From Planktothrix rubescens CCAP 1459/22 (GTDB lineage: Bacteria > Cyanobacteriota > Cyanobacteriia > Cyanobacteriales > Microcoleaceae), in the NCBI GenBank assembly GCA_904830895.1, contig LR882958.1:4545501-4609500 (forward strand): 64,000 bases of DNA. Direction: 5' to 3'. The notes under the pieces were generated by a model. That model searched no databases. It saw only the letters and a program-made list of their open reading frames with translations, and was not told where the DNA came from. The first letter of the stretch is position 1. Every line of letters starts with the position of its first letter. The position numbers were made by a program, and so were the translations under genes. Below are positions 696-17,527 of this stretch, one piece after another.

Positions 696-1616
696 CTAAT
701 TCCTCAAGTTTAATTGTTTTTCCCACCAGATTATAGTCTGTTCTAATCCAGTATCTAAGTCAAATTTTGGAAACCACCGTACCTCTTGGGATAAACGAGT
801 TACATCGGCTACCAATAAGGGTGTATCATTAGTAGCTTCTGGTATAGCACCCAACTGAATTAAGTTTGATCGTTTTATTTGCTCCCCAATTTTATAGACT
901 ATATCTTTAATTGCTATTGGTTGACCCGAACCAATATTAACAGGGCCAGTAACATCACTTTCTAAAAGAGCAACAAAAGCATCAGCAACATCCTGTGCAT
1001 ACAGGAAGTCTCGCATTTGCCGACCATGAGAACAACGTGCAGGTTCACCTTTTAATAGAGAGCAGATCACAGAAGCAACTAGGCGATCAACATACTCATA
1101 AGGCCCATAGGGCAAAAAAATTCGGCCCCAAGCACTACTGAGATTAGTTAACTTAGCATAAGATTGTAACATTTCCTGCATAGCATTTTTACAAATACCA
1201 TAAGGAGAAGATGGATTTTTGGGGGTAAGAAATTCTGAACAATAGCCATAATTCCAATCATACTCAGCACAAGTACCAGACATAACGACTCGCTGACCAC
1301 CTTGGGCTTGAAATTGTTTCAGCATTGCTAAACTAGCTTGTACCCACAAAAAGTTATCTTCTGCTTGCCAATATTTACCCGGCATACTATAACACCAAGC
1401 AAAATGTAAAAAATGAGTTGGTTTTATTTGTTCAAATAGTTGTTTAATTTGGTTAATATCTAATAAATTAGCTAAATGCCAGTGACAATTCTTGAGATTG
1501 ATATCAGGTGCATTCTCGGAAACAATGGCATGGATTTCAAAATTGCGATCGCGCAAATTTTTCAGAGTATGTCTACCAATAAACCCCTTAGCACCTGTAA
1601 CAACTACTTTTTTCAT
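696..1616 (-). CDS. NAD-dependent epimerase/dehydratase (extended SDR), nucleotide-sugar reductase or epimerase
   Basis: A 306-residue extended short-chain dehydrogenase. The N-terminal Rossmann motif is TGAKGFIG, and the catalytic Tyr-Lys pair is in YGICK near residue 158, after an SGTCAEYDW segment. It is the last step-like enzyme in an operon holding rfbF, rfbG, a C-methyltransferase and a 3,5-epimerase, so it most likely reduces the 4-keto group of the CDP-linked sugar or epimerises it. The ATG overlaps the TGA of the upstream 3,5-epimerase gene (ATGA) and has no good Shine-Dalgarno sequence, which suggests translational coupling. Exact substrate and stereochemistry cannot be read from the sequence. 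Confidence 0.82.
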   Translation of the reverse strand: MKKVVVTGAKGFIGRHTLKNLRDRNFEIHAIVSENAPDINLKNCHWHLANLLDINQIKQLFEQIKPTHFLHFAWCYSMPGKYWQAEDNFLWVQASLAMLKQFQAQGGQRVVMSGTCAEYDWNYGYCSEFLTPKNPSSPYGICKNAMQEMLQSYAKLTNLSSAWGRIFLPYGPYEYVDRLVASVICSLLKGEPARCSHGRQMRDFLYAQDVADAFVALLESDVTGPVNIGSGQPIAIKDIVYKIGEQIKRSNLIQLGAIPEATNDTPLLVADVTRLSQEVRWFPKFDLDTGLEQTIIWWEKQLNLRN

Positions 1617-2146
1617 AAGGTAAAGTTTGGGTAACTTTTATCTTTTTCAGAAATGATCATTGGTGATGTCTCAGGCCAAATAATCCTAAATATTGGATCA
1701 TCCCATCTTACTCCAGTAGCTGACTCAGAATGATAGAACTCTGACATCTGATAAAAAACCTCGGTATTGTCCACCAAAGTCTGAAACCCATGAGCCATGC
1801 CTTCAGGAATATAAAGCATTTTCCGATTTTCAGCAGTTAGCTTAACAGCTACCCACTGCTTAAAGGTTGGTGACTCAGGACGCAAATCAATAATGACATC
1901 ATAGATCGCACCCATTGTACACCTAACTAGCTTTGCTTCTTCATGGGGTTTAGCTTGATAGTGCATCCCCCGCAAAGTTCCTTTTTTAAGATTAAAAGAA
2001 ATATTACATTGAACTAGATTAGGATTTAACCCTTGTTCAATAAACTCTTTTTGACACCAAGATCGAGCAAAAAAGCCCCTTTCATCCCTAATCAATTCTG
2101 GCTCTATAATATAAGCACCTTTTAGTTGAGTTTCAGTAAATTTCAA
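1613..2146 (-). CDS. rfbC: dTDP-4-dehydrorhamnose 3,5-epimerase family protein (RmlC/RfbC-like)
   Basis: A 177-residue cupin of normal RmlC length. Typical family segments are visible: RDERGFFARSW near the N-terminus, LRGMHYQ with the catalytic His, KLVRCTMGAIYDVIIDLR, and YIPEGMAHGFQTL. It should epimerise C3 and/or C5 of a 4-keto-6-deoxyhexose nucleotide. Its neighbours make a CDP sugar rather than a dTDP sugar, so the natural substrate is probably the CDP-4-keto (possibly C-methylated) intermediate. The start is TTG, not ATG: it overlaps the preceding TGA (TTGA) and is preceded by a perfect GGAGGTGATT ribosome-binding site 7 nt away, which decides the start. Confidence 0.88.
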   Translation of the reverse strand: MKFTETQLKGAYIIEPELIRDERGFFARSWCQKEFIEQGLNPNLVQCNISFNLKKGTLRGMHYQAKPHEEAKLVRCTMGAIYDVIIDLRPESPTFKQWVAVKLTAENRKMLYIPEGMAHGFQTLVDNTEVFYQMSEFYHSESATGVRWDDPIFRIIWPETSPMIISEKDKSYPNFTL

Positions 2147-3372
2147 GCAATCACCTCCACTTCAGGAATAGGGACAACAAACTTGCCTCCCCACTCACGA
2201 ATATGACTCATTTGCTCGATAATCTCATCCTTGATATTCCACGGTAAGATTAGCAGATAATCTGGTTTAGTTTCGATAATTTTATCAGGATGATGGATAG
2301 GAATGTGGGTGCCGGGTAAAAATAAACCTTGTTTATAGGGACTACGATCTACTGTATAGTCGAGTAAATCTGTCCGAATTCCACAATAGTTCAATAATGT
2401 ATTCCCTTTAGCTGGCGCACCATAACCGACAACTGATTTCCCCTGATTTTTGATATCAATTAAGAAACGGAGTAAATGGCGTTTTGTTGCCTTAACTTGT
2501 TCCCCAAACCCTAAATAAGTTGACCGTTGCTCTAACCCAGCTTTACTTTCTTTAGTTTTGAGTTTGGAAACGCGATCACTAATAGGTTTTTTACCATCAT
2601 TATGTTGCCCATAAATTCGTAAAGATCCCCCATGAGTGGGTAATTCTTCCACATCAAATAAAATTAAACCATGAGTTGCAAAGACTTTTTCGACGGTCAA
2701 AAACGAGAAATAAGAAAAATGTTCGTGGTAAATGGTATCGAATTGATTTTGTAAAATAAGTTGTAATACATGAGGAAATTCCATTGTTAAAATCCCATCA
2801 GGTTTAAGTACAATCTTCATTCCTGCTACAAAATCATTCAAATCAGGAACATGAGCCAAAACATTATTACCCAATAATAAATCAGCTTGTTTCCCTTGAG
2901 CAACTAATTCTTGAGCCGTTGACACCCCAAAAAACTTAACCAAAGAAGGAATTCCTTTTTCTTCAGCAACTTTAGCCACATTAGCAGCAGGTTCAATTCC
3001 CAATACAGGAATATTTTGTTTCTGAAAATACTGAAGCAAGTAACCATCATTACTGGCAATTTCAATAACTTGACTATTCGCGTTCAAACCAAATCGTTGA
3101 GTCATTAATTCAGTATAATTTTCAGCATGGCGCAACCAAGTTTCTGAATAGGAGGAAAAATAAGCATAATCACTAAAAATTTGATCCGGCGTTTCAAATT
3201 CTTCCAACTGAACTAAAAAACAGTTTTCACAAACATAAGCATGAAGCGGATAAAATTTTTCTGCCTTATTAATAGCATCTGATTCTAAATAAGCATTAGA
3301 AAGGGGAGACATCCCCAAATCAACAAAAGTATGGTTTAATAAATTACCACAAAAACGGCATTTCGATGGCAT
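2143..3372 (-). CDS. Sugar C-methyltransferase with N-terminal zinc-binding domain (TylC3-like)
   Basis: A 409-residue protein with the three-part architecture of NDP-hexose C-methyltransferases. An N-terminal zinc-ribbon-like domain carries CRFCG near residue 5 and CENC near residue 48. A central SAM-binding Rossmann domain contains VIEIASNDGYLL near residue 100 and the D/N-rich LLGNNVLAHVPDL. The C-terminal domain contains GYGAPAKGNTLLNYC, the typical C-methyltransferase C-terminal motif. Relatives such as TylC3 methylate C3 of a 4-keto-deoxysugar. Placed directly after rfbF and rfbG, it predicts a branched C-methyl 6-deoxyhexose. The ATG has AGGAG about 11 nt upstream and lies 5 bp after the rfbG stop. 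Confidence 0.87.
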   Translation of the reverse strand: MPSKCRFCGNLLNHTFVDLGMSPLSNAYLESDAINKAEKFYPLHAYVCENCFLVQLEEFETPDQIFSDYAYFSSYSETWLRHAENYTELMTQRFGLNANSQVIEIASNDGYLLQYFQKQNIPVLGIEPAANVAKVAEEKGIPSLVKFFGVSTAQELVAQGKQADLLLGNNVLAHVPDLNDFVAGMKIVLKPDGILTMEFPHVLQLILQNQFDTIYHEHFSYFSFLTVEKVFATHGLILFDVEELPTHGGSLRIYGQHNDGKKPISDRVSKLKTKESKAGLEQRSTYLGFGEQVKATKRHLLRFLIDIKNQGKSVVGYGAPAKGNTLLNYCGIRTDLLDYTVDRSPYKQGLFLPGTHIPIHHPDKIIETKPDYLLILPWNIKDEIIEQMSHIREWGGKFVVPIPEVEVIA

Positions 3373-3377
3373 TGAAT

Positions 3378-4379
3378 TTACATCTCCTTTAAATTTTGAT
3401 CGTCTTGTTTACTCACAAAAATCTTATACCACTCAATAGTTTCTTTTAAACCTTTTTCTAAGGAATATTGAGGATACCAATTCAACATCTCACGAGCTTT
3501 TTTAGCGGAAAGATACTGGTGCTTAATTTCATTCTTGGCTTGATTCAAGATAACAGGTTCTAAATCTTTCTTATCCATCAAAGCTAGAATTTTATGCACC
3601 AGTTCTAACACCGTAATTTGCAGTTCATTACTAAAATTAAACGCCTCGCCCCAGATTTCTTTTCTCTCCATCTGTTCCGCTAAATGTAGATAGGCTAACA
3701 CCCCATCCTTGACATAAAAATAATCCCGAATATAACTCCCATCACTGCGAATAGTAACGGGTTTATCGCGCAATGCTGAACGAATGGTATCCGGTACAAT
3801 CCGGTTAAAATTCAAGTCCCCGCCGCCATAAAAATTACCACAGCGAGTAATACAAACTGGCAATCCATAACTAACATAATAAGTGCGACAAATCAAATCT
3901 GCACAACTTTTGGACACATCATAAGGGTGTTCTCCTTGTAAGGGTGTGGTTTCATCATAAGGCAAAATTTCTTGATCGCCATACGCTTTATCACTAGAAG
4001 CCACCACAATACGACTCACTCCCCCCACACGACGACAGGCTTCTAAAAGGTTCCAAGTTCCTTTAATATTAGCTTCAAAGGTGGCCAAGGGTTCACGGTT
4101 AGCTACTCCGACAATAGTTTGAGCCGCTAAGTGAAAAACCGTATCAACTTCATACTCATTAATCGCCCGTTCTAGGGTCGGTAAATCTTCAATACAACCC
4201 CGAACAATATTAATTTGATTATGCCAGTTTTCAGTATACAGTCGAGACTGGGGAACACCATCTCGGATTAAAGCCGTTACCCTAGCTCCTCGCTGCACTA
4301 ACTCCGCTACTAACCAACTTCCTAATAACCCTGTACCCCCGGTGACAAACACAGAGCGATCGCGCCAAAATTGACTCAT
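3378..4379 (-). CDS. rfbG: CDP-glucose 4,6-dehydratase
   Basis: Starting from the ATG at 4377-4379 ([10 protein letters not shown]) gives 333 residues. This ATG overlaps the TGA of rfbF (ATGA) and has AAGG upstream, so it is preferred over the upstream in-frame TTG. The NAD-binding motif is [11 protein letters not shown] near the N-terminus, the catalytic pair is in YDVSK near residue 150, and the segment [18 protein letters not shown] is characteristic of CDP-glucose 4,6-dehydratases. It converts CDP-D-glucose to CDP-4-keto-6-deoxy-D-glucose, the branch point for CDP-deoxysugars. No rfbH-type 3-dehydrase is nearby, so the 3,6-dideoxy route is not indicated. Confidence 0.92.
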
Positions 4380-5155
4380 TTCCATACCTTCCAAGGAGCT
4401 TGTTCAGTTTCCCACATTTTATTGAGTTCAGTGTATTCTTTAAAGGTATCCATCGCATAAAAAAAGCCATGATGCTGATAACTCATTAACTGCCCCTCTG
4501 CCGTTAAACGCTCTAAAGGTTCCCGTTCTAATATACAATGCCCTCCCTCTAAATAATCAAATACTTTGCGGTTAAAGACAAAATAACCCGCACTTACCCA
4601 TTTATTATCCTTAATTTTTTCTCCAAACTTCAAAACCCTAGCTTCTCGTTCATCAATATCCACAATTCCATAACGAGAAGGCGGTTGTACCGTTGTGACG
4701 GTTGCCAGTTTTCCATGTTCCTTATGAAAACTGAGTAATTCTCCAATATTGACATTGGCCAGACCATCTCCATAAGTGACCATAAATAGATCATCTTCGA
4801 TGTACTTCTCGATCTGCTTAATTCGTCCTCCGGTCTGGGTATCAACTCCTGTATTAGCTAACGTTACCCGAAAATTCTGCTCATCGTAATTATTCAGATA
4901 ACTAATTTGGTTAGGAACTCCTAAACCAATGGTAAAGTCATTATTCATCGCTTCATAATTGAGGAAATATTCCTTGATCATATTTCCCCGATATCCCAAA
5001 CAGGTGATAAAATCCAGGAACCCATAATGGGCATAGAGTTTCATAATATGCCAAATAATCGGACGTCCGCCAACTTCAACTAATGGTTTAGGACGATATT
5101 CCGTTTCTTCTCGAAGGCGAGTTCCCAAGCCTCCTGCTAAAATTACAACTTGCAT
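4376..5155 (-). CDS. rfbF: Glucose-1-phosphate cytidylyltransferase
   Basis: A 259-residue nucleotidyltransferase of standard RfbF length. The N-terminal signature [18 protein letters not shown] is followed by [32 protein letters not shown] contains the metal-binding Asp, and [18 protein letters not shown]-like segments typical of the family follow. It forms CDP-glucose from CTP and glucose 1-phosphate, feeding rfbG, with which it overlaps by 4 bp. It is probably the first gene of the sugar-nucleotide sub-operon: a 145-bp gap separates it from the upstream methyltransferase, and an AGGA motif precedes the ATG. Confidence 0.93.
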
Positions 5156-6347: not shown

Positions 6348-9300
6348 TTAATCCTGCACCTTAATACTAAAGTTCTGACAAACTCTTGTCAAGTGAGGAC
6401 TATAACAAGGATCATTATCAATATACTTTTGCCAACGTCCTTCAATAATTTTTGATTCTCGGTTTAGGCGTTCTTTCTTTTCCGGTGTATCTTCATAACC
6501 CCGACTTTTTGATTCATGATGATAAAGTTTAACATGAGGTAAGTACAAATTTCGATAGCCTTTATCTAGCATCTTTAAACACAAATCGACATCATTATAC
6601 GCGACTGTCAAATGTTCATCAAAACCTCCAATTTGTTCAAATACTTCTCGCCGACACATCAAGCAAGCACCTGTAACCGCAGAGACATTATTAAACCCAA
6701 TAACATTGCCAAAATATCCAGGGATATCAGAAGACATAGCATAATATCCATGACCAGCAACGCCACCTAATCCCATCACAACTCCGGCGTGTTGAATCGT
6801 ATTATCTGGGAATAATAATAACACTCCTACCGCACCAATTTGAGGACGTTGAACTTGTTCTACCATCGCATTCATCCAGTCAGGATTAAGCACTTCGGTA
6901 TCGTTATTTAAGAATAGCAGATAATCTCCCGTTGCTTGACTGACTCCATAATTATTAATGGTGGAGAAGTTAAAAGGAATATCTAAACGATAACATTTAA
7001 ACCGTGAAGATTCCTGAGAACTCCACTTAGAAAACACTTTAAATGTATAGTCTTGAACGCTACCATTATCAATGACAATCACTTCATAGTTAGGATAGTT
7101 TGTTTGAGTAAAAATAGACTCTAAACATCGGTCTAATACTTCCCCTAAATCTCTTGTTGGAATAATGATGCTAACCTTCTTATAATCGGTAATTTCATAA
7201 CGGACTAAATGATGTCCTAAAAACCCTGGAACTCCTGTTACTATTCCTGTTTCTCCTCGTCTATCTATAGCATCCTGAATCGCTTTTTCTGACGCTTCAT
7301 AAGCATAGGGTTTAGCTTCGCTTCCTCCTGCGGTGGAACCGGAGTGCATTCGCCAGTGATATAAAACTTTGGGAATATGAGCAATTTTTTGAGTTTTTTC
7401 GGTAAATCTCAAGACTAAATCATAATCTTGAGCGCCTTCATAACCGATTCTGAAACCTCCAATTTCTTCTATAATAGAACGTCGGTAAGTTCCTAAATGG
7501 CAGGTGTACATCCGAGACAAAAATGATTCAGGACACCATTCTGGTTTGAAGTAAGGATTAATTAAGTTACCATTGGGACTAATTTTATCTTCATCGGAAT
7601 AAATCATATCTAAATTAGGATTCCGATTTAATAATAAAGCAACTTCATATAACCCATCGGGAGTAATTAAATCATCATGATCCAGCAAGGTAATAAATTC
7701 CCCTGTTGCTAATTCTAAGGCGGAGTTAGAGGATGCAGAAATATGACCATTTTCTGTTCTATAAATAACTTTAATTCGGGAATCTTTAGCTTGATATTCT
7801 TCTAAAACTTCCTTAACATGGGGAGAGGGGGAAGCATCATCAGCAATACAAAATTCCCAGTAGGGATAAATTTGATTGATCACAGATTCTATGGCTTCCC
7901 TGAGAAATTCTTCTGGGGTATTATAAACAGGCATAATCACGCTAAATACGGGTTTATGCACGAATAATTCCATCGTTTCTGCCATTTTTCTTAAATCTGC
8001 TGCTCTGGGAAAGTTCTTGTCTCGCCAGAGTTTATACATATAATCTTCAACTAGAATTTTATCTAAAAGTGCAGTTTTTAAGCCATTAAAATCAATTCCT
8101 AATGCGGGATCAAGTTCGGATGCTCGTCGATAATGATGTAGAGAATCTTCTATTTTACCTTGTTTAGCTAAAGCGGTTGCTAAGTTACAGTGTGACCAAC
8201 CGAAATGGGGGTTAATTTCTAAGCATTTGCGGTAAGTTGCGATCGCTTCTTCTGAATTACCTTGTTTTTCTAAAGTATCAGCTAAATTATGATAAGACCA
8301 GTAAAAATCAGGATTTGATTCAATCGCTTTTTTATAAGATAAAACCGCTTGTTCAAATTTCTTTTGGCGTTGTCGAATATCTCCTAAATTGTGATAGGAA
8401 CCAAAAAAGTCAGGGTTTAATTCAATGGCTTTTTGGTAGGTTTTTGCGGCTGCTTCCAGTTCACCTATTTTTTCTAAAGGTTCCCCTAAACGATGGTAAA
8501 TATCCGATGAATTGGGGTTAATTTCTAAGGCTTTTTGGTAAGTAGCGATCGCATCTTCAAACTCACTCATCCTGACAAATGCTTCTCCCAACTTTAGTAA
8601 TATTTCAAAGTCTTGGGGTTGAGCATCTTTAACTTTTTTATAATAAATTAGTGCTTGTTCACGCTGATTTTTACTCCATAATAAATTAGCATATTTCCAA
8701 CATAATTCTAAGTTATCTGGCTGGGATTTTAACAGATTTTGATATACTTCAATATCTTCACTATCAAATTCAATAGATTTTTCATAATATTGGTTTGCTT
8801 TTTGTAAATCGCCTGGGGTTTGTCGGTACTTTAAGGTATCTGCCAACTGAGAATAAATCTTTGTTAAATTAGGATTTAATTCTAACGCTTTAGAATAGGA
8901 AGCGATCGCAGCGTCCCATCGTTCTAATTTAACTAAAACCTCGGCAAAACTCTGATGACATTCGGCTGATTCAGGATTTAATACGATTGCTTGGGAATAA
9001 GCAGAAACGGCATTTTCCCATTGATTTAGGTGAGCAAAAACATTACCTAAACCGTGATGAAATATCGCTGCATTGGGTTTGATTTGAATTGCTTGGGAAT
9101 AGGCATCAATAGCTTGATTAAAATGTTGACAATGAGAATAAACATCTCCCAGTGCATGATATATTTCTGGTGATTTAGGATTAAATTGTATGGCTTCTAA
9201 CAATATATTTAAGGCTTCTTCAAACAAACCTTTTTGAACTAATATTTTCCCTAATATTTCATAAGTATTTCCTAAATTGGGATTGAGATCAATCGCTTTG

Positions 9301-9812
9301 CGACAGGACTCTATTGCTTCATCCAGTTGACCCTGTTGTGCTAATGCTTCTCCTAAATATTGATAAGCGATCGCATCTTCTGAATTAAGTTCCAGAGCTT
9401 TTTGATAGTAACTAATTGCTTGTTCTAATTCACCTTGTTTAAATAGAGCTTGACCTAAACTATTATAAAATTCGTTAGCATTTGGATTGATAGCGATCGC
9501 ACATTGTAACGTCTTAATTGTATCGGGTAAATTTCCAAGTTTCAATAAAACTTCTGCTAATTGATATTGTGACCAAGCTGAATCAGGATTTAGTTCAATG
9601 GCACGCTGAAATGCCTGAATTGACTCTAATAGTTGATTATTTTCTGCTAATGCTTCCCCTAAATTATGGTAGACCCAATGAAAATTAGGGCTTAATTGTG
9701 CTGCTCTACGATAAGCAATAATGGCAGCTTGCAATTGACCCGATTGTTTCAGTTGATTGGCTTCTTCTAGTAAATTTGTAGCTGTTTTGAAGTTGTTGGA
9801 TTTAGATAGCAT
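6348..9812 (-). CDS. TPR protein fused to two family 2 glycosyltransferase domains
   Basis: A 1,154-residue protein. Residues about 1-560 are an almost continuous array of tetratricopeptide repeats with the recurring pattern AI..Y.KA(L/I)E(L/I)NP. Two GT-A-fold GT2 domains follow. The first begins at FSVIMPVYNTPEEFL, with the DDASPSP and DHDDLI acidic motifs. The second begins at KVSIIIPTRDLG, with FLNNDTEVLNPDW and the late HHESKSRG motif. The protein has no signal peptide or membrane segment, so it is probably cytoplasmic. TPR arrays fused to GT2 domains are common in cyanobacterial polysaccharide or glycoprotein clusters, where the TPR part probably recruits partners. The neighbouring TPR and GT2-GT2 genes reproduce this architecture in two pieces. 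Confidence 0.9.
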   Translation of the reverse strand: MLSKSNNFKTATNLLEEANQLKQSGQLQAAIIAYRRAAQLSPNFHWVYHNLGEALAENNQLLESIQAFQRAIELNPDSAWSQYQLAEVLLKLGNLPDTIKTLQCAIAINPNANEFYNSLGQALFKQGELEQAISYYQKALELNSEDAIAYQYLGEALAQQGQLDEAIESCRKAIDLNPNLGNTYEILGKILVQKGLFEEALNILLEAIQFNPKSPEIYHALGDVYSHCQHFNQAIDAYSQAIQIKPNAAIFHHGLGNVFAHLNQWENAVSAYSQAIVLNPESAECHQSFAEVLVKLERWDAAIASYSKALELNPNLTKIYSQLADTLKYRQTPGDLQKANQYYEKSIEFDSEDIEVYQNLLKSQPDNLELCWKYANLLWSKNQREQALIYYKKVKDAQPQDFEILLKLGEAFVRMSEFEDAIATYQKALEINPNSSDIYHRLGEPLEKIGELEAAAKTYQKAIELNPDFFGSYHNLGDIRQRQKKFEQAVLSYKKAIESNPDFYWSYHNLADTLEKQGNSEEAIATYRKCLEINPHFGWSHCNLATALAKQGKIEDSLHHYRRASELDPALGIDFNGLKTALLDKILVEDYMYKLWRDKNFPRAADLRKMAETMELFVHKPVFSVIMPVYNTPEEFLREAIESVINQIYPYWEFCIADDASPSPHVKEVLEEYQAKDSRIKVIYRTENGHISASSNSALELATGEFITLLDHDDLITPDGLYEVALLLNRNPNLDMIYSDEDKISPNGNLINPYFKPEWCPESFLSRMYTCHLGTYRRSIIEEIGGFRIGYEGAQDYDLVLRFTEKTQKIAHIPKVLYHWRMHSGSTAGGSEAKPYAYEASEKAIQDAIDRRGETGIVTGVPGFLGHHLVRYEITDYKKVSIIIPTRDLGEVLDRCLESIFTQTNYPNYEVIVIDNGSVQDYTFKVFSKWSSQESSRFKCYRLDIPFNFSTINNYGVSQATGDYLLFLNNDTEVLNPDWMNAMVEQVQRPQIGAVGVLLLFPDNTIQHAGVVMGLGGVAGHGYYAMSSDIPGYFGNVIGFNNVSAVTGACLMCRREVFEQIGGFDEHLTVAYNDVDLCLKMLDKGYRNLYLPHVKLYHHESKSRGYEDTPEKKERLNRESKIIEGRWQKYIDNDPCYSPHLTRVCQNFSIKVQD

Positions 9813-9835
9813 TGTTGATTTTTCCCGAATTGAAC

Positions 9836-9921
9836 TAAGTCATGATGTTGTTGCGCTTCAGCGCTCCATGTTGTTGCGCTTCAGAGCTCCATAATTGTTG
9901 CGTGCGAGAAGCTCTTACGCA
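9836..9921. repeat. Short imperfect tandem/palindromic intergenic repeat
   Basis: Between the two glycosyltransferase genes the unit TGTTGCGCTTCAGCGCTCCA is repeated almost exactly with a single-base change, followed by a degenerate third copy (TGTTGCGTGCGAGAAGCTC). Each unit contains a small inverted repeat around GCGCTTCAGCGC or GAGAAGCTC. A related fragment, GCGCTCAAGCGCAACAACG, lies near 50993. This looks like a dispersed non-coding repeat family; no function is claimed. Confidence 0.5.
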
Positions 9922-9929
9922 CCCTACAT

Positions 9930-11966
9930 TTAATGGTTGATTTCTAGTTTTACTTTTGCAAATTTAGCATAAGTTTCGTTGTTTAGAACAGCTTGGAATA
10001 ACAATTCTGTTGCTTCAGACAAATTTCTGAGTTCAATTGTTTCGCAAAATCCACAAAACTCTGAATTTAGGTTTTCAGGATGCAGTAAATGAACATCAGG
10101 ACGGGGGAAGTTAGTCGGAATTTCCTTAATTACTTGGCCATAATTACCAATAATTTGAACTGCGGTTATTTTCTCCTGTTTTCCCAGTACCCAACCTTTA
10201 AAAGTAATTTGGCTAATTCCCCCATAAGTTTTAATTTCGGGTTCATCTATCGCACAATCCTGTAATACTCTATCATCAAATTCTAGGAAAACATCAAAAA
10301 TTTCTACTTCAGCAAATCGCCTTAAACTATAATCCGATGCGGATAGCGTTAAATTAGGATTATAACAGGGATCGTGCTCAATATAACGTTGCCATTTTTG
10401 CCGTGTAATTGTCACTTCCTGCATAAATCGTTTTAACTTATCTGGAGTTGTATCATAACCCCGACTTTTTGATTCATAATGATATAAAACAACATGGGGT
10501 AAATAAATATTCCGATACCCTTGTTCAACGATTTTCAAGCAGAAATCAACATCATTATAAGCCACGGCTAATTGTTCATCAAACCCTCCCACCTGTGTAA
10601 ATATTTCTCGCCGACACATCAAACAAGCCGCCGTCACCGCCGAATAATTACTAATAGAAATAATTTGACCATAATATCCGGGGTCTGTTTCCGATGCCAT
10701 GCGGTGACTATGGGCGGCAAAATGACCAATTCCCACCACAACACCAGCGTGTTGAACGATTTTATCAGGATACCTTAATAACGCACCCACCGCACCAATA
10801 GAAGGCCGTTGTGCCTGTTCTACCATCGCATCAATCCAATCAGGATGAATGACTTCGGTATCATTATTTAAGAATAGCAAATAATCCCCGGTGGCTTTAC
10901 TAACGGCATAGTTATTAATCTTAGAAAAATTGAAAGGAATATCTAAAGCATAATATCTAAACCGATTCGGTTCCTTTTCTTGCCATTTCTCTAAAATATC
11001 CTGGGTTGCTGATTCCGTACTGCCATTATCAATGACAATAACTTCATAATCGGGATAAATGCTCAGAGTAAAGATAGATTCCAAACAGCGATTTAAGATT
11101 TTTCCTAAATCTTTAGTCGGAATAATAATACTCACCCGCTTGTAATCTAAAATTTTATAGCGGATTTGATAATGTCCTAAATAAATCGGAACATCTTTAA
11201 CAATTCCGGGTTCTCCTCTGCGGTCAATTGCATCTTTTAACGCCCGTTTCGCGGCTTCATAAGCATAGGGTTTCGCTTCTGTTCCTCCAGCGGCTGAACT
11301 GCTATGAATCCGCCAATGATAGAGGATTTTAGGAATATGAAAAATCTTATCGGTTTTTTCCGTAAATCTCAAGACTAAATCATAATCCTGACTGCCTTCA
11401 TATCCGGTTCTAAATCCTCCAATTTGGTTGATAATTTCTCGTCGATAAACTCCGAAATGGCAAGTATACATCCGGGACAAAAAGGAATCAGGACACCAAT
11501 CTGGTTTAAAGAAATGACCTGTTAATTCTCCTTTTTCATTTAGTTTATCTTCATCGGAATAAATCATATCCGCGACGGGATTCTGATTTAATAAACTCAC
11601 CACTTCATATAAAGCATCAGGAGTCAAAACATCATCATGGTCTAATAACCCGATAAATTCTCCCGTTGCTAACTCTAAAGCAGAATTAGAAGTTACAGAA
11701 ATATGACCGTTTTTAGTTCTAAAAACCACTTTGATTCGTCTATCTTGCTGTTGATATTCTTCTAATATCTGTTTGACATGGGAAGCCGTCGAAGCATCAT
11801 CCGCAATACACAATTCCCAATTAGTATAAACCTGATCTAACACCGATTGAATTGCTTCGCGTAGAAACGTTTCCGGGGTGTTATAAACGGGCATAATAAT
11901 ACTAATCAGGGGTTGATATTTGAAATCTTTCGTAGTAAGCCCTTTAGGGCTATGAGGCGTGAACAC
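9930..11966 (-). CDS. Two-domain family 2 glycosyltransferase; real N-terminus probably lies upstream through a frameshift
   Basis: From the GTG at 11964-11966 the protein is 678 residues. The first GT2 domain is at about residues 20-240 (LISIIMPVYNTPETFL, DDAST, DHDDVLTPDA). The second is at about 280-530 (KRVSIIIPTKDLGK, FLNNDTEVIHPDW, YHYESKSRG). A C-terminal module at about 560-670 shares the GW / RPDV / CGF pattern with the methyltransferase at 5300-6274. The frame stays open upstream of the GTG to position 12062 and beyond and encodes a family-like linker (SQSEYDKLYQAWLKYN), but holds no ATG and no usable start. The GTG itself lies inside a palindromic repeat. The gene is therefore probably translated as an extension of the upstream TPR gene by a -1 shift at 12063-12072, or the two were split by a homopolymer error. 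Confidence 0.85.
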   Translation of the reverse strand: MFTPHSPKGLTTKDFKYQPLISIIMPVYNTPETFLREAIQSVLDQVYTNWELCIADDASTASHVKQILEEYQQQDRRIKVVFRTKNGHISVTSNSALELATGEFIGLLDHDDVLTPDALYEVVSLLNQNPVADMIYSDEDKLNEKGELTGHFFKPDWCPDSFLSRMYTCHFGVYRREIINQIGGFRTGYEGSQDYDLVLRFTEKTDKIFHIPKILYHWRIHSSSAAGGTEAKPYAYEAAKRALKDAIDRRGEPGIVKDVPIYLGHYQIRYKILDYKRVSIIIPTKDLGKILNRCLESIFTLSIYPDYEVIVIDNGSTESATQDILEKWQEKEPNRFRYYALDIPFNFSKINNYAVSKATGDYLLFLNNDTEVIHPDWIDAMVEQAQRPSIGAVGALLRYPDKIVQHAGVVVGIGHFAAHSHRMASETDPGYYGQIISISNYSAVTAACLMCRREIFTQVGGFDEQLAVAYNDVDFCLKIVEQGYRNIYLPHVVLYHYESKSRGYDTTPDKLKRFMQEVTITRQKWQRYIEHDPCYNPNLTLSASDYSLRRFAEVEIFDVFLEFDDRVLQDCAIDEPEIKTYGGISQITFKGWVLGKQEKITAVQIIGNYGQVIKEIPTNFPRPDVHLLHPENLNSEFCGFCETIELRNLSEATELLFQAVLNNETYAKFAKVKLEINH

Positions 11967-11977
11967 CTCACTACGAA
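11929..11977. repeat. 49-bp palindromic repeat element carried inside a coding frame
   Basis: The ends are TTCGTAGT and ACTACGAA, a perfect 8-bp inverted repeat. Inside are AGCCCTTTAGGGCT (perfect palindrome) and GAGGCGTGAACACCTC (hairpin). This nested structure is typical of small mobile palindromic elements. On the minus strand it is read in frame in the GT2 gene and contributes the residues from about IRSEV to TTKDF in the linker before the first GT2 domain. Confidence 0.7.
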
Positions 11978-12052
11978 TTGTGTTGTATTTTAGCCAAGCC
12001 TGATAGAGTTTATCATATTCTGATTGAGATTGAGAGACGGAAAAGTAGGGGG

Positions 12053-14608
12053 TTAACCTAGCTTTTTTTTTTCCACAATTGCCTCTAATTTCTTAACTAC
12101 TTCAGGATGATCGGGTTCTAACTGCAATGCCATTTGATAGAATACGATCGCACCATCTAAATGATCATGATTAACCAACGTATTCGCTAACTGAATATAC
12201 AATTGGGGATCATCAGGTTTAATCTCAATGGCTTTATGATAAACCGCAACATGATCCGGGTTTTCTTGAATTACTTGATAATAATAATCCAAGGATTCCT
12301 GTAAATCTAATTTAGCTCGATTTCTCAACGCATCGGCAAGTTTTTCTTGAATATTCGGTAAATCTGATTGAACTTTAATTGCACCTCGATAGGCGACAAC
12401 CGCTTCTTCCCAATTCTCTAATTCCGTTAAAACTTTCCCTAAATTATAATGAGACCAAGGAAATTCAGGATTAAGTTTAATCGCATTTTGATAAGCAGGA
12501 ATTGCTTCTTCCAACCGTTCTAAATTAACCAAGGCATCCGCTAAACTATTATATGACCAAGAGTAGGTTGCATCTAATTTAATGGCATTTTGATAGGCAG
12601 AAATCGCTGCTTCCCAACGTTCTTGTTTAAAGAAAATATCCGCTAAATTATTCTGTGTCCAGAATACACTAAAATTCAGTTCAATTGAACGTTGATAAGC
12701 ACTAATAGCAGATTCAAACTGTTCTTGATCTCGTAGTAAATCCCCTAATTTCTGATAAACTTCGGCTTGACTATGATCAAGTTCGGTTGATTTTTGATAG
12801 GCTTTAATCGCTGCTTCCGTTTCCCCAACTTTCGCCAGTGCATCCCCGAAACCTTTATAGGATTCCGCATCTCCACTCGGGTTCATTTGTACTGCTTGAC
12901 GCAAGACCTGCACTGCTTCTTGCCAACTTTCCTGTTTAACTAAAACTTTCCCTAATCCATAATAGGAAGAAACCAATTTAGGATTCAAGGAAATTGAGTT
13001 TTTATAAATATTAATTGCTTCTTCTAAACGCCACTGACGGTTAAAAATTTCTCCGATTTTGTAATAAGCAACGGATTGATTTGGGTCTAATTCCAAGATT
13101 TTGTTATAAACTCGGATTGCATCATCCCAACGTTCTTGACTGCTGTATAAATCGGCAAACCCATAATAAAATTCTAACTGAGAGGGTTCCAATTCTAAGG
13201 CTTTTTGATAGGAAGAAATTGCCGCTTCGATTTCTCCTTTGGCTTGATGCAGTTGCCCTAATTGATAATAGACTCCTGCCCACTGAGGATTTAATTTCAA
13301 GGCTTGTTGATAATATCTGATCGCCTCATCAAATCTACCTTGTTTAAATCGAGTATTGCCTAAATTAAAATGTTCCTCTGCCGTGGCTTTTTCCGGTTCC
13401 AAACTATAGGCTTTTTCCAAACATTGGGAGGCTGATTCTAACTGCCCCATTTGGGTTAAAACCTTAGCATAATTGCGATAAACCCCAGCAAAATCAGGTT
13501 TTAAACTGACCGCTTGTTGATAATAAGAGGCAGCTTTTTCTAATCGTTCTTCCTGAGCATATAAACTGCCCAAATTTGCATAAACTTCTGGATATTGGGG
13601 TTGAATTTCTAAAGCTTTTGAATAACAACGAATCGCCGCCGACATTTCCCCTAAAATTTGTAAAGCATTGCCTTGAATTTTATAGGCTTCTGCTAAATCC
13701 GGTTGTAATTTTAATGCTTTTTGACAAGTAGCGATCGCTTGATCCCATTCTTTCAAGGCACAATAGGCTTGGGCTTGTTTTAAGTAGGTTTGGGGATTAC
13801 CAGGATGATTCATCGGGGTTTTTGTGTTATGACTCACCGTTTGCTGACGAGTTGCCCCGGCTAAAGTTTCTTGGGGTGATAAATCCCTGGCTGTGGCGGC
13901 GGCTAGGGTATCGGAAGGGGCTGGAGCTCCCAGGGTCGGAGTATTAAATTCGATCGCTTTCCGGTAGACCTGGGTTGCTTCCTGGGCTTTTCCTTGGTCT
14001 TTGAGCAGATTGGCCAAAGATTGATGGGCTGGGGTTAAATTGGGATCGAGTGCAATCGCATTCCGATAACAGATCTGCGCTTCGGTGGTGGCTCCCTGTT
14101 GTGCCAACTGCTGGCCAAGGTTAAAATGTTCTTCTGCGGTGGCTTGATTTGGTTCTAATTTAAACGCTTGATAGAGGGCTTGTGCGGATTTTTGGGGCTG
14201 ATTAAGTTGTGTCCAAACTTTGGCTAAATTCCGATAAGCCCCAGTGAAATCCGGTTTCAGGGTGACAGCTTTTTGATAACAAGCGATCGCCTGTTGCCAT
14301 TGTTGTGATTTAGCATACAGACTTCCCAAGTTAGCATGAACTTCTGGCCAATTAGGTTGAAGTTGCAATGTCCGGGTATACCATTCTTGGGCGTCTTGTA
14401 ATTTCCCCTGTCTTTGGAATATATCCGCCATCAGTTTATAACCGGGGGCATAATCAGACTGAATTTGCAACAACTGGTTGCAAGCCTTGATCGCATCCTC
14501 AAATTGCCCTTGATTAATATAGATTTCTGTTTGTTGATGGAGAAACTGTACACTACGGGCGCGAATTTCGTTAGGTAACATAGTTGGTTTGCTGTTGCTG
14601 ACACTCAA
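12053..14608 (-). CDS. Large TPR-repeat protein, probable N-terminal half of a TPR-GT2-GT2 protein
   Basis: An 851-residue protein made almost entirely of tetratricopeptide repeats (units such as EAI..Y..A(I/L).L.P.). Two long blocks are internally duplicated. The segment with VHANLGSLYA, AVTLKPDF and ATAEEHFNLG in the first 190 residues recurs as VYANLGSLYA, AVSLKPDF and ATAEEHFNLG at about residues 330-450. An Ala/Ser/Thr-rich linker (around residues 225-265) separates them. The protein ends EKKKLG in an A10G tract, where a -1 shift would continue into the GT2-GT2 gene. It has no signal peptide; a scaffold role in the glycosylation machinery is inferred. Confidence 0.88.
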   Translation of the reverse strand: MSVSNSKPTMLPNEIRARSVQFLHQQTEIYINQGQFEDAIKACNQLLQIQSDYAPGYKLMADIFQRQGKLQDAQEWYTRTLQLQPNWPEVHANLGSLYAKSQQWQQAIACYQKAVTLKPDFTGAYRNLAKVWTQLNQPQKSAQALYQAFKLEPNQATAEEHFNLGQQLAQQGATTEAQICYRNAIALDPNLTPAHQSLANLLKDQGKAQEATQVYRKAIEFNTPTLGAPAPSDTLAAATARDLSPQETLAGATRQQTVSHNTKTPMNHPGNPQTYLKQAQAYCALKEWDQAIATCQKALKLQPDLAEAYKIQGNALQILGEMSAAIRCYSKALEIQPQYPEVYANLGSLYAQEERLEKAASYYQQAVSLKPDFAGVYRNYAKVLTQMGQLESASQCLEKAYSLEPEKATAEEHFNLGNTRFKQGRFDEAIRYYQQALKLNPQWAGVYYQLGQLHQAKGEIEAAISSYQKALELEPSQLEFYYGFADLYSSQERWDDAIRVYNKILELDPNQSVAYYKIGEIFNRQWRLEEAINIYKNSISLNPKLVSSYYGLGKVLVKQESWQEAVQVLRQAVQMNPSGDAESYKGFGDALAKVGETEAAIKAYQKSTELDHSQAEVYQKLGDLLRDQEQFESAISAYQRSIELNFSVFWTQNNLADIFFKQERWEAAISAYQNAIKLDATYSWSYNSLADALVNLERLEEAIPAYQNAIKLNPEFPWSHYNLGKVLTELENWEEAVVAYRGAIKVQSDLPNIQEKLADALRNRAKLDLQESLDYYYQVIQENPDHVAVYHKAIEIKPDDPQLYIQLANTLVNHDHLDGAIVFYQMALQLEPDHPEVVKKLEAIVEKKKLG
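12060..12075 (-). promoter_or_regulatory. Putative -1 frameshift site (A10G slippery tract) at the TPR/GT2 junction
   Basis: On the minus strand, the last codons of the TPR gene are GAA AAA AAA AAG CTA GGT TAA. The tract contains A AAA AAG in the correct phase, the same heptamer used in E. coli dnaX -1 frameshifting. After a -1 slip the next codons are GCT AGG TTA ACC CCC, which is exactly the open frame of the GT2-GT2 gene. The run of ten identical bases (T at 12063-12072 on the plus strand) would also permit transcriptional slippage, and equally a one-base sequencing error. Confidence 0.55.
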
Positions 14609-14677
14609 TGGGGATCTTCCCCAATCAATTCTATCGGGTTTTGGGTTTCACATATCAGATTTTTGGGATTAAGATAT

Positions 14678-17527
14678 TTATTTCCACGGCGATCGGACAA
14701 ATAGTATTTCTAATAGCCTTTTCAAAGAAACCAGATTCAGCCAAATATCTTCGGTCAGGGGATTTTGATACATTAACCCCCGTAGCGGATAGCAAGCAAA
14801 CCCATCTCCAGTCAAACAATAATGTTCTAATCCCAGATATTGACTAATTACCCAATAATAATGACGATTATAGTGGGGGGACATCCACTCAATAATTTTG
14901 GTTCCCGGTTGACAAAACAAAATATTAGTTAAACCGCTACCATGGGCCCCCATAATTACCTTAGCTTGAGCAAACAAAGCCACCTGTTCCGTAAAGGATA
15001 GCGTTTCTAATTGCACGGTCACAAAGCCCCAAGGACGTAAGAATTGAATTACTTCATCTTCATTTAAAACCCGACGATAGCTGGCATCTCCCCGACTAAT
15101 ATAAATTCGTTCGGGATAATTCTTACCCGAATTTGAGCTTTTAGGGAGAAACCAACGGCGCAAAGTATCAATTGCCCAGGGTTGCAACCATCCTGTATGT
15201 CCAGCAAAGGAGGGAACAATTAGCTGTTGTGCCTGAATATGGGGAAATTGATCACTTTCAAGGATTTTAAACTCTGGAATTCCTAAGCGAGTTAGGGTTT
15301 CCCGTTGAAAGGGTGCTTGGTAACTATTGACTAAAAACCAATCTATTTGATCAAAATTTATCCCACTTTGGCGCAGGAGTTCCAGTCTCGGTAAAATATC
15401 AACCATCCAATGAAAATAGACATTCCCCGACAGCCCCGATAATACTACGACCCGACCTTCAATGGTCTCTAGGGGCGGTAATTCTGACTGTTGAAAAACT
15501 TGATGCTGTTGTGGGTCATAACTGGGACAACCCGGAAGGGGGGCAGGATATTCCCTTGAGACATCGGCTAATAGTTGATTATCAGGTGTAATAATAGCGA
15601 TCGCTCTACAAACCAGCCAATAATTCTCCTGGGGAACAATCCAGGCTCGTCCATTAGGAATTATCGCCACAAACAAAGGCGTTGAAACTGGATTATTTTT
15701 GGATGTCAAACCTTTTTGAATTCCCTGTCCCAAATTCTGCCACTGAAACAATTTGAACACACCTTTCAGACAGATTTCACAATCTAACCCCCCGCATTGA
15801 TTGGGTTTAGAGGGTGTCTGTTTCCAGTTCTCCAAGTTTTGGGAACCGCATAATCCTGATAGATTACAATAATGGCTATCCTGTAAATTATTATTTTTCA
15901 GCCAGGTTAGGGTTGAATCACACACTCCTTCAGGAATATCCGTCTGTTGAATATAGGGAGCATTTGCCCATTCTTGCCATAAAGTTAAGATTGAGGGATG
16001 ATCATTGACCCAAGAATTAAACTCCTTTTCCTGCTGAGTCTGTAAAACTTTACTATAGTAGTCCGCAGCAAATTCCCAATATCCTTGTTTTTCCAATATT
16101 CTCCCCAATTGCAAATTCACTTCAAGTAACTGAATAGGGGAAAAACTAGACTCATTTTTGAGTAAATTTAAAGCAATTTGATAAATCGTTAAAGCCGCAT
16201 TGAGTTGTTTATTTTTGAATAAACAATTGCCTAATTTTAGATAAATTTCTACTGAATAGGGTTGAATTTGTGCTGCTTTTTGGTAGTAGCTCACTGCTTG
16301 ATCAAACTTGCCATAAATAGTTAAAGTATTTCCCAGATGTAGATAGGTTTGATAGAGATGTTCATAGACTGTTTTACCCCCCCTAGCCCCCCCTTGGTCT
16401 GGGTGGGGGACAGACACTTTCCCCCCTTGTTCATCAGAGTTGGAAGTATCTGCCCCCGCTTGGCAAGGGGGGGTTGGGGGGGTATCATCCTGTTGTAATG
16501 CCGTGAGAAAATCAGCACAGGACTTTCTGGCCAAAGATAATTCATCCAATTCCGAACGTTTCTGTACTCCCTGACAGTAACCGTCTACAAATTTAGGTTC
16601 TAGCTCAATAACTTTTTTAAAACAACTGAAAGCCGCATCAATTCTTCCTAAATTGAGTAAAGAAGCTCCACAGTCGGTATAGGCAAATATATTTTCGGGT
16701 TCTAATTCAATAACTTTTTCAAAGTAGGAAACTGCATTTTTATGTTGATTTTGTTGCTGGAAAATTTTGCCTAAATTGGTATAAGCCAGAGGAAAATCAT
16801 CTTTAATATTTAGGGCTTGATGATAGGATTTAATCGCCTCTTGGATTTTTCCTTGAGCATTAAAAACTTGACCAATATTATTATAAATTAATGATTTTTC
16901 TATTTCATTATCATTATAAATTAATGATTTTTCCCAGGCTTCTAAAGCCCCGTCATAATCATTTATACCAAATAACAAACAACCTAAATTATTATAGGCA
17001 TTAGCAAAATCTGGTTGCAGATGAATCACTCTTTGATAGAGTGCAATAGCTCGTTTTGTATCTCCCAACTGCCCATAAGCCATTGCTAAGGTAAAATAGG
17101 AATTAACATGATTGGGGTTTTGTTCTAAGGTTTTTTGATAGCATCGAATCGCCTTGAGAATATCCCCACTCCAGTAATAAGCCTGACCCCATTGAAAATA
17201 TAATTCTGTCCAAGTTGGACGCAAATTTAGGGCTTTTTTATAACAGAAAAAGGCTGGCTCAAACTCTCCTGTATTTCGTAAAACTTGAGCTAAATAGGCA
17301 TAGGCTTCTACAAAATCTGGTTGTAACTTAATTGCCTGTTTATAGGCAGAAATGGCTTCTGGGAATAGTCCTTGAACTTCATACCAATCCCCTAAAACTT
17401 TATAGGTTTGAGCATGATCGGGATCTCGTGCTAAAATTCGTGAGATTGTCTGATCAGCTTCTCGCAGATTTCCCACATCTAAATCAGTGATCGCTGATTG
17501 GATTAAGTCTTCAATGCTTGGATTCAC
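14678..17527 (-). CDS. TPR protein with C-terminal GT61 (DUF563) glycosyltransferase domain
   Basis: A 949-residue protein. Residues about 1-500 are tetratricopeptide repeats (for example AYNNLGCLLFGINDYDGALE). Residues about 680-930 match the GT61/DUF563 glycosyltransferase family: VVVLSGLSGNVYFHWMVDIL with the conserved His-Trp, IYISRGDASYRRVLNE, and MGAHGSGLTNILFCQPGT followed by an ending like IEWM. Between them lies a Cys-containing region of unknown role (CNLSGLCGSQ, CGGLDCEICLKGVF). An in-frame 110-bp C/G-rich repeat at 16375-16484 adds about 36 residues (DDTPPTPPCQAG through GGARGGKT) between TPR segments. It is the first gene of the minus-strand glycosylation cluster. Confidence 0.87.
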   Translation of the reverse strand: MNPSIEDLIQSAITDLDVGNLREADQTISRILARDPDHAQTYKVLGDWYEVQGLFPEAISAYKQAIKLQPDFVEAYAYLAQVLRNTGEFEPAFFCYKKALNLRPTWTELYFQWGQAYYWSGDILKAIRCYQKTLEQNPNHVNSYFTLAMAYGQLGDTKRAIALYQRVIHLQPDFANAYNNLGCLLFGINDYDGALEAWEKSLIYNDNEIEKSLIYNNIGQVFNAQGKIQEAIKSYHQALNIKDDFPLAYTNLGKIFQQQNQHKNAVSYFEKVIELEPENIFAYTDCGASLLNLGRIDAAFSCFKKVIELEPKFVDGYCQGVQKRSELDELSLARKSCADFLTALQQDDTPPTPPCQAGADTSNSDEQGGKVSVPHPDQGGARGGKTVYEHLYQTYLHLGNTLTIYGKFDQAVSYYQKAAQIQPYSVEIYLKLGNCLFKNKQLNAALTIYQIALNLLKNESSFSPIQLLEVNLQLGRILEKQGYWEFAADYYSKVLQTQQEKEFNSWVNDHPSILTLWQEWANAPYIQQTDIPEGVCDSTLTWLKNNNLQDSHYCNLSGLCGSQNLENWKQTPSKPNQCGGLDCEICLKGVFKLFQWQNLGQGIQKGLTSKNNPVSTPLFVAIIPNGRAWIVPQENYWLVCRAIAIITPDNQLLADVSREYPAPLPGCPSYDPQQHQVFQQSELPPLETIEGRVVVLSGLSGNVYFHWMVDILPRLELLRQSGINFDQIDWFLVNSYQAPFQRETLTRLGIPEFKILESDQFPHIQAQQLIVPSFAGHTGWLQPWAIDTLRRWFLPKSSNSGKNYPERIYISRGDASYRRVLNEDEVIQFLRPWGFVTVQLETLSFTEQVALFAQAKVIMGAHGSGLTNILFCQPGTKIIEWMSPHYNRHYYWVISQYLGLEHYCLTGDGFACYPLRGLMYQNPLTEDIWLNLVSLKRLLEILFVRSPWK
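16375..16484. repeat. 110-bp C/G-rich MITE-like repeat inside the GT61 gene
   Basis: The ends are TACCCCCCCTAGCCCCCCC and GGGGGGGTTGGGGGGGTA, imperfect terminal inverted repeats that begin and end in TA. If the TA is a duplicated target, the net insertion is 108 bp, exactly 36 codons, which explains why the host reading frame survives. Similar runs occur at 19762-19796, 57966-58035, 59820-59875 and 61991-62055. Confidence 0.6.

What the first reader, a model, noticed from the sequence alone, without database searches (positions are those of the whole stretch)
12053..12075. A10G tract at the junction of a TPR gene and a GT2-GT2 gene fits a dnaX-like -1 frameshift that fuses them
The TPR gene ends GAA AAA AAA AAG CTA GGT TAA. 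A -1 slip on A AAA AAG enters GCT AGG TTA ACC CCC, the exact frame of the GT2-GT2 gene. That frame is open across the whole gap, has no ATG, and encodes a plausible glycosyltransferase N-terminal linker (SQSEYDKLYQAWLKYN) upstream of the in-repeat GTG. The fused product (about 1,559 residues, TPR-GT2-GT2) would match the architecture of the gene at 6348-9812. Programmed frameshifting or transcriptional slippage in a glycosyltransferase, making both TPR-only and fused forms, would be unusual. A one-base homopolymer error giving A10 instead of A11 is the main alternative.
Basis: partly seen in the sequence, partly recalled or inferred. Interest (0 to 1): 0.75.

Follow-up and report, generated by a model that had tools for sequence, protein, structure and literature searches.

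The report
Poly-A slippage site fusing TPR–glycosyltransferase
In the cyanobacterium Planktothrix a sugar-transferring enzyme is split over two reading frames exactly at a run of ten A's that is kept in all nine genomes of the genus where the spot could be read, so the cell most likely slips on that run to make both a short scaffold protein and a long scaffold-plus-enzyme protein from one gene.

Summary
At window 12063-12072 (- strand) an A10 run ends an 851-aa TPR gene (GAA AAA AAA AAG CTA GGT TAA). One extra A, or a -1 shift, opens 710 codons of a GT2-GT2 glycosyltransferase. The junction is readable in 9 of 10 genomes of the genus (own included); all 9 carry GAAAAAAAAAAGCTAGGTTAA. The 27 codons after the tract evolve as protein in the -1 frame (dN/dS 0.11). 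No start codon of the second frame is shared by more than two genomes, and 4 of 9 have no ATG/GTG/TTG between the tract and the enzyme's first strand. Of 19 family matches outside the genus that reach the C-terminus, 17 lie in one long fused frame. A homologous A8-A10 tract occurs at this junction in 14 of 21 loci read outside the genus: in frame in 13, and out of frame, the other way, in one. This resembles dnaX-type poly-A switches. Transcriptional slippage making TPR-only and TPR-GT2-GT2 forms is the best reading; ribosomal -1 shifting is the main rival. No RNA or protein data exist here. It is a new member of a known kind.

The parts
12053..14608 (-). Zero-frame ORF: TPR protein, 851 aa from the first TTG (the true start may be further in), ending EKKKLG*
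   Evidence: Pfam TPR_1, TPR_11 and others
12063..12072 (-). A10 tract, the proposed slippage site
12062..12068 (-). A_AAA_AAG heptamer in the phase needed for -1 ribosomal slippage (rival mechanism)
   Evidence: direct reading
12053..12055 (-). Zero-frame TAA two sense codons after the tract; an mRNA one A shorter stops at TAG (12057-12059)
9930..12062 (-). Second frame: linker, two GT2 domains and a C-terminal extension, 710 codons plus stop
   Evidence: Pfam Glycos_transf_2 best stretch from residue 54, Glyco_tranf_2_3 best stretch from residue 309
11982..12062 (-). 27-codon linker directly after the tract, coding-constrained in the -1 frame in 9 genomes
   Evidence: dN/dS 0.11; variable columns 5/2/15 of 27 at codon positions 1/2/3
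11929..11975 (-). Interspersed repeat inserted in frame in the linker; carries the non-conserved GTG at 11964-11966 (edges by eye)
   Evidence: absent in G009
12082..12085 (-). GAGG, kept in 9 of 9; a possible weak Shine-Dalgarno-like element 13 nt before the heptamer; role unproven
   Evidence: codon table of the last 20 TPR codons
6348..9812 (-). Paralogue, TPR-GT2-GT2 as a single 1,154-aa ORF: what an unbroken copy looks like

Best explanation
The TPR gene and the GT2-GT2 frame are one gene, anciently a single TPR-GT2-GT2 ORF, now read through a conserved poly-A recoding site. RNA polymerase slips on the A10 tract and makes mRNAs of mixed A length. Templated A10 mRNA gives the 851-aa TPR protein; mRNAs one A longer (or two shorter) give the ~1,559-aa TPR-GT2-GT2 enzyme; one A shorter or two longer stop within 5 codons. 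The cell therefore gets a scaffold-only and a scaffold-plus-enzyme form in a ratio set by slippage. Shown here: the sequence, its conservation, coding constraint across the break, lack of a conserved second start, fused relatives, and tracts at the same place elsewhere. Inferred: that slippage occurs, that RNA polymerase rather than the ribosome slips, and that both forms are useful.
For: (1) 9 of 9 readable genus junctions (own included) are identical over GAAAAAAAAAAGCTAGGTTAA; the 10th genome's contig stops inside the GT. (2) Coding constraint runs through the break: dN/dS 0.05-0.18 in TPR segments (0.305 in the last 14 codons), 0.11 in the 27-codon linker, 0.09-0.11 in two GT2 segments, 0.29 in the C-terminal part. 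(3) Between the tract and the M of the first GT2 strand the GT frame has no ATG/GTG/TTG in G003, G004, G007 and G009; the other five have one each, at three different places, none shared by more than two genomes. (4) Outside the genus, 17 of 19 family matches reaching the C-terminus lie in open frames of 1,042-1,607 aa; alignment runs across the break. (5) Run rarity: no other A/T run of 7 or more in TPR+GT in any of the 9. A10G occurs 2-4 times per genome except 26 in G002; G003 and G009 have two each, so this is the only A10G site that all nine can share. (6) Control: the A run of a second TPR gene is A10 in 5 of 10, A9 in 3, A11 in 1 and interrupted in 1. (7) A8-A10 tracts at the same junction in 14 of 21 non-genus loci: in frame in 13, out of frame in G060 in the opposite direction; of the 26 slipped frames (+1 and -1) of those 13, 21 stop within 13 codons. 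(8) No downstream RNA structure. (9) Length-conserved runs of nine A's are taken as a sign of purposeful slippage (PMC1088944, passages).
Against: No RNA-seq, reporter or peptide data. Base-substitution conservation of the four tract codons alone is unremarkable (about 0.39 expected); the case rests on length and frame. Within Planktothrix the shift direction is uniform, which GeneTack's rule (PMC3711429, section 10) would read as ribosomal; the opposite direction rests on one genome on a 5.3-kb contig (G060). Most g10 and g11 genes hold other A8-A9 runs as well, so A8 there is not special. Both Microcoleus (g9) orthologues read have no tract, and 5 further loci have none or a shorter one. Five of 26 slipped frames in the in-frame relatives run 26-73 codons before a stop. 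A TPR-only function is unproven.
Confidence: 0.76

Rival explanations
1. Programmed -1 ribosomal frameshifting at A_AAA_AAG (E. coli dnaX type), alone or together with transcriptional slippage, makes the fusion.
For: The heptamer is in the correct phase and conserved in 9 of 9, with GAGG 13 nt upstream in 9 of 9. Direction is uniform in the genus, which GeneTack's rule reads as ribosomal.
Against: No stable downstream structure: z from -1.1 to +1.4 over 9 genomes and two windows; no covarying pair in the 6 of 9 sequences aligned. Ten A's exceed the nine at which RNA polymerase slips efficiently (PMC5009743, passage). Tracts at the same place in other genera end in T, C or G, and G060 needs the other direction, which a -1 slip cannot give.
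Confidence: 0.13
2. Gene fission: the GT2-GT2 half is translated separately from its own start (GTG at 11966, a non-standard codon, or re-initiation after TAA).
For: In this genome the GTG at 11966 would leave both GT2 domains intact (first domain match starts at residue 54 of the frame). GT2-GT2 relatives in the wider order have starts of their own: in 18 of 19 regions read (L165-L183) the motif was found, each with an ATG/GTG/TTG upstream in its open frame, one of them (L180) open to the contig edge.
Against: The GTG lies in an inserted repeat and is shared only by G000 and G001; 4 of 9 genomes have no ATG/GTG/TTG before the domain. The linker upstream is under coding selection. No ATG/GTG/TTG lies within 22 codons after the tract in any of the 9.
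Confidence: 0.06
3. Phase variation: the tract changes length in DNA by replication slippage and switches the glycosyltransferase on and off between cells.
For: Poly-A tracts mutate by slippage, and surface genes are typical phase-variable genes (PMC3711429, section 11); the second TPR gene's run varies from A9 to A11.
Against: 9 of 9 assemblies have A10, none an on state; random switching should leave some A11, A9 or A8. Only consensus assemblies were seen, no reads.
Confidence: 0.04
4. Sequencing or assembly error (true tract A11).
For: Homopolymers are error-prone.
Against: The same A10 in nine assemblies, isolates and MAGs, while the run of the second TPR gene varies in the same genomes.
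Confidence: 0.01

Closest known systems
Citrobacter rodentium tssM1 (A11 transcriptional slippage, PMC4256274)
   Same: A long poly-A run just before a premature stop; slippage makes a short and a full-length protein; no Shine-Dalgarno or structure stimulators near the site (abstract and section 8 read).
   Different: tssM1 slippage is shown by mass spectrometry and both forms are shown to be needed; here nothing is measured. Gene family and phylum differ; the tract here is A10.
Two-ORF dnaX genes with 10 A's (GeneTack, PMC3711429)
   Same: Two adjacent frames joined by a -1 frameshift at A10, proposed as transcriptional realignment (section 23 read).
   Different: DNA polymerase subunit, not a glycosyltransferase.
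Thermus thermophilus dnaX
   Same: Slippage on nine A/T gives two length forms; the long form is in frame there, like the in-frame A9-A10 tracts in g5, g8, g10 and G055 here (passages of PMC5009743).
   Different: Planktothrix has the reverse arrangement: the short form is templated.
E. coli dnaX (A_AAA_AAG ribosomal -1)
   Same: Same heptamer in the same phase.
   Different: No downstream stem-loop detected here; here the long form, not the short one, needs the shift.
Helicobacter pylori alpha-1,2-fucosyltransferase
   Same: A glycosyltransferase with an A-rich -1 slippery site (reference title; details recalled).
   Different: A different enzyme family, with phase variation (recalled).

Membership tests
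Programmed transcriptional slippage site | Homopolymer of about 9 or more A/T at the frame transition | tested here: met
   A10 in 9 of 9 readable genus genomes, own included
Programmed transcriptional slippage site | Run length conserved among homologues (criterion in PMC1088944) | tested here: met
   Met within the genus, 9 of 9. In other genera the length varies A8-A10, and in 7 of 21 loci the tract is absent or shorter
Programmed transcriptional slippage site | Both shift directions among homologues (GeneTack rule) | tested here: inconclusive
   Planktothrix needs +1 nt, G060 needs -1 nt; the latter is a single genome on a short contig
Programmed transcriptional slippage site | Heterogeneous A length in mRNA | not testable with these tools
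   No RNA reads available
E. coli dnaX-type -1 ribosomal frameshift | X_XXY_YYZ heptamer in phase | tested here: met
   A_AAA_AAG at 12062-12068
E. coli dnaX-type -1 ribosomal frameshift | Downstream stem-loop | tested here: not met
   z -1.1 to +1.4 in 9 genomes; no covarying pairs in 6 of 9 sequences; a 4-bp UAGG/CCUA pairing right after the tract recurs in 8 of 9 folds of the first 50 nt
E. coli dnaX-type -1 ribosomal frameshift | Upstream Shine-Dalgarno-like element | tested here: inconclusive
   GAGG 13 nt upstream, 9 of 9, but only four bases
TPR-GT2-GT2 glycosyltransferase | TPR repeats and two GT2 domains in one polypeptide | tested here: inconclusive
   Both halves carry the domains and relatives are fused, but here the single polypeptide depends on recoding that is not measured
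Translationally coupled gene pair | Start codon of ORF2 close to the stop of ORF1 | tested here: not met
   No ATG/GTG/TTG within 22 codons after the tract in any of 9; a TTG at codon 23 in G006 and G008, a GTG at 32 in G000 and G001 and at 47 in G002

The most novel reading that the evidence does not exclude
A family-wide slippage switch in cyanobacterial TPR glycosyltransferases. The same poly-A site at the TPR/GT boundary sets the ratio of scaffold-only to scaffold-enzyme in several genera. In some the full enzyme is templated and slippage gives the short form (A9-A10 in frame, slipped frames mostly stopping within a few codons); in Planktothrix the roles are reversed, as between dnaX genes of different bacteria. 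Both forms would be needed for surface polysaccharide assembly.
Probability: 0.4. Interest if true: 0.72.

Novelty: new member of a known kind. Interest (0 to 1): 0.6.

Why it matters
A plain ORF finder splits this gene in two and starts the second half at a GTG inside a repeat, so an annotation made that way would miss the fused enzyme. If the reading is right, a bloom-forming cyanobacterial genus has kept a recoding site in a sugar-polymer enzyme through genus-wide divergence (synonymous differences about 0.3 per site), and related genera carry the reversed arrangement. That gives a natural series (A8, A9, A10 in frame; A10 out of frame) for testing how RNA polymerase slippage sets protein ratios outside dnaX, insertion sequences and secretion systems.

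Tried and rejected
Downstream stem-loop: none; Rfam over window 9000-15000: no match. Separate start for the GT: rejected as general, not conserved. Substitution conservation of the tract codons as evidence: rejected as weak, 107 of 135 invariant K/E columns keep their third base anyway. The other three A10G sites of the genome as further recoded genes: one is in frame in an ORF that looks cytochrome-c-like (my reading, CAACH motif; also in G001); one (L124) lies where two ORFs overlap and was seen with A10G only in this genome among the 30 loci read; one is the second TPR gene, whose run varies from A9 to A11, so I use it as a control and do not claim it as recoded. In that control, G005 is a less certain orthologue (59% identity). 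A Fisher p of 0.029 was computed on 8 of 10 genomes of that second gene, before G006 and G009 were read; I give counts instead. Equivalent A-tract frame breaks in GT2-GT2 genes of the wider order: 19 regions from 19 of the 60 genomes with a match were read (L165-L183), the motif was found in 18, and no comparable break was seen; this is a sample. Literature: the listings showed no paper on recoding in this gene or in Planktothrix; most listings were cut (for example 15 of 1,396, 20 of 49, 12 of 17), and Sharma et al. 2011 and the GeneTack database were not read.

Full report
OBSERVATION. The - strand at 12076-12053 reads GTG GAA AAA AAA AAG CTA GGT TAA, with ten A's at 12063-12072. The zero frame is an 851-aa TPR ORF (Pfam TPR families). 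From G 12062 the -1 frame reads ARLTPYFSVSQSQSEYDKLYQAWLKYN... and stays open for 710 codons; Pfam's best GT2-type stretches start at residues 54 and 309. The fused product is 1,559 aa. The tract is the only homopolymer of 10 or more in the window and one of four A10G sites in the 5,698,378-base genome.

NOT AN ERROR. A search of the genus (10 genomes including the window's own) found the GT2-GT2 orthologue in all 10, each in its own open frame (525-761 aa; the 525 is a contig cut) and none fused in frame. The junction can be read in 9, the window's own among them; in all 9 the DNA is GAAAAAAAAAAGCTAGGTTAA. G000 and G001 are of the same species; identity of the GT to the window's falls to 86% in G009.

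THE SECOND FRAME IS TRANSLATED FROM THE TRACT ON. Over the 9 genomes, dN/dS (a counting method in my script) in the first 27 codons after the tract is 0.11 (pS 0.30), against 0.09 and 0.11 in two GT2 segments, 0.29 in the C-terminal part, 0.05-0.18 in the longer TPR segments and 0.305 in the last 14 TPR codons. Variable columns in the linker fall 5, 2 and 15 of 27 at codon positions 1, 2 and 3, and the other two frames hold 2-4 stops. Between the tract and the M of MPVYN, G003, G004, G007 and G009 have no ATG/GTG/TTG; G000 and G001 have the GTG at codon 32, G002 a GTG at 47, G006 and G008 a TTG at 23. The GTG of G000 lies in a repeat with 18 matches in this genome (one in this window) that is missing from the linker of G009.

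ANCESTRY. In one search (61 family genomes) 19 match rows outside the genus reach the C-terminus; 17 lie in open frames of 1,042-1,607 aa, one (G012) is a contig-end fragment, one (G060) has 719 aa. Alignment with two Microcoleus, a Drouetiella and two other loci runs across the Planktothrix break. So the ancestor was most likely one TPR-GT2-GT2 ORF. The paralogue in this window (6348-9812) is still one ORF.

THE TRACT IS PROBABLY OLDER THAN THE GENUS. G060, another genus, also has an A10 tract at the same junction, out of frame but needing one A fewer or two more. Reading 21 non-genus loci: a tract of A8-A10 sits at the homologous place (after ...LEKIL-P/E-KK) in 14: A10 in G018, G019, G060; A9 in G013, G050, G051, G052, G055; A8 in G053, G054, G056, G057, G058, G059. 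These are four genera (g5, g8, g10, g11), so not 14 independent cases. It is absent or shorter in 7 (G014, G045, G048, both G049 loci, G065, G086; one G049 locus has AAGAAAAAAG there). In 13 of the 14 it is in frame. Counting codons from the tract's first codon, for in-frame A9-A10 the two slipped frames stop after 4-13 codons, except +1 in G050 (51); in the six A8 loci +1 stops after 5-12, while -1 stops after 4 in two and runs 26-73 in four. In G018 and G019 (A10, then TGA) the +1 and -1 slips stop after 4 and 6 codons, and the tract is their gene's only A/T run of 8 or more. In Planktothrix +1 or -2 opens the GT, while -1, 0 and +2 stop after 4, 6 and 5 codons in all nine.

CONTROLS AND LIMITS. 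A second TPR gene of the same genomes also ends in an A run: A10 in G000, G001, G003, G004, G009; A9 in G006 (intact 635-aa ORF), G007, G008; A11 in G002; interrupted in G005 (59% identity, less certain orthologue); tails are replaced or broken in G004, G005, G007 and G008. Run length is thus free to drift in a similar gene, but not at the finding. Against over-reading: the four tract codons alone would stay unchanged with chance about 0.39 given the general K/E third-base rate; most g10 and g11 genes hold further A8-A9 runs; and the one genome each of g5, g10 and g11 searched holds many A10 runs (74, 83 and 82 overlapping matches, against 8 in this genome, 10 in G009, 23 in G018 and 57 in G019).

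MECHANISM. RNA polymerase slips efficiently on nine A/T (PMC5009743, passages). Baranov et al. take a length-conserved run among homologues as a sign of purposeful slippage and report 8-10 A runs in Nostoc insertion sequences (PMC1088944, passages). GeneTack's authors propose transcriptional realignment for two-ORF dnaX genes with 10 A's (PMC3711429, section 23). tssM1 of C. rodentium, A11 before a stop, has been measured: mRNAs with 10-15 A's, no nearby stimulators, both forms needed (PMC4256274, abstract and section 8). The finding fits this group. The E. coli dnaX type predicts a downstream stem-loop; RNA folding of 50- and 70-nt windows gives z from -1.1 to +1.4 over 9 genomes, and six of the nine sequences, aligned, give no covarying pair. 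The heptamer and GAGG remain compatible with some ribosomal slippage. By GeneTack's rule (section 10) the uniform direction in the genus speaks for the ribosome, and the mixed direction including G060 for the polymerase; the latter rests on one short contig.

FUNCTION (inference). Further along the same strand, downstream of the GT, lie ORFs that look like a nucleotide-sugar set (cytidylyltransferase-like 4376-5155, dehydratase-like 3378-4394, further epimerase/methyltransferase-like ORFs 696-3372; names from my reading of the translations, not from a family search). The enzyme probably adds sugars to a surface polymer, with TPR repeats as scaffold; a TPR-only form could hold partners without catalysis. 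This step is speculative.

VERDICT. Real, conserved, and best read as a poly-A recoding site; as far as my searches show new as to gene and organism, known as to kind.

Noticed in passing
L154 (own genome C1:1216500-1222500), A10G at C1:1219513-1219523, - strand: A second TPR gene ends at an A10 run; one A fewer would add ~80 aa of TPR. Run length varies A9-A11 in the genus (one interrupted) and G006 has an intact 635-aa ORF with A9: possible slippage or decay.
   Followed up: partly
L153/L124 (own genome C1:676807-676817): A10G where a 213-codon open frame with membrane-like segments and a 341-codon frame overlap by about 78 codons; seen with A10G only in this genome among the 30 loci read.
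   Followed up: partly
L128, L137, L146, L152 (genome G002): G002 has 26 A10G sites against 2-4 in the others; the 4 read are one transposase-like ORF (Pfam DDE_3 and HTH, run on L128) with the A10 in frame: a possible IS that uses slippage.
   Followed up: partly
window 11929-11975: Interspersed repeat (18 matches to a 22-base core in the genome) inserted in frame in the linker, one or two copies in 8 of 9 genomes, absent in G009: a repeat rewriting an inter-domain linker.
   Followed up: partly
L185 (genome G060 contig C280): An out-of-frame A10 at the homologous TPR/GT junction in another genus, opposite direction; single genome, short contig.
   Followed up: partly
L183 (genome G142): In-frame A10 followed by GATTAA about 88 aa before a GT2 motif in another family of the order; the two other frames stop close by.
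   Followed up: no
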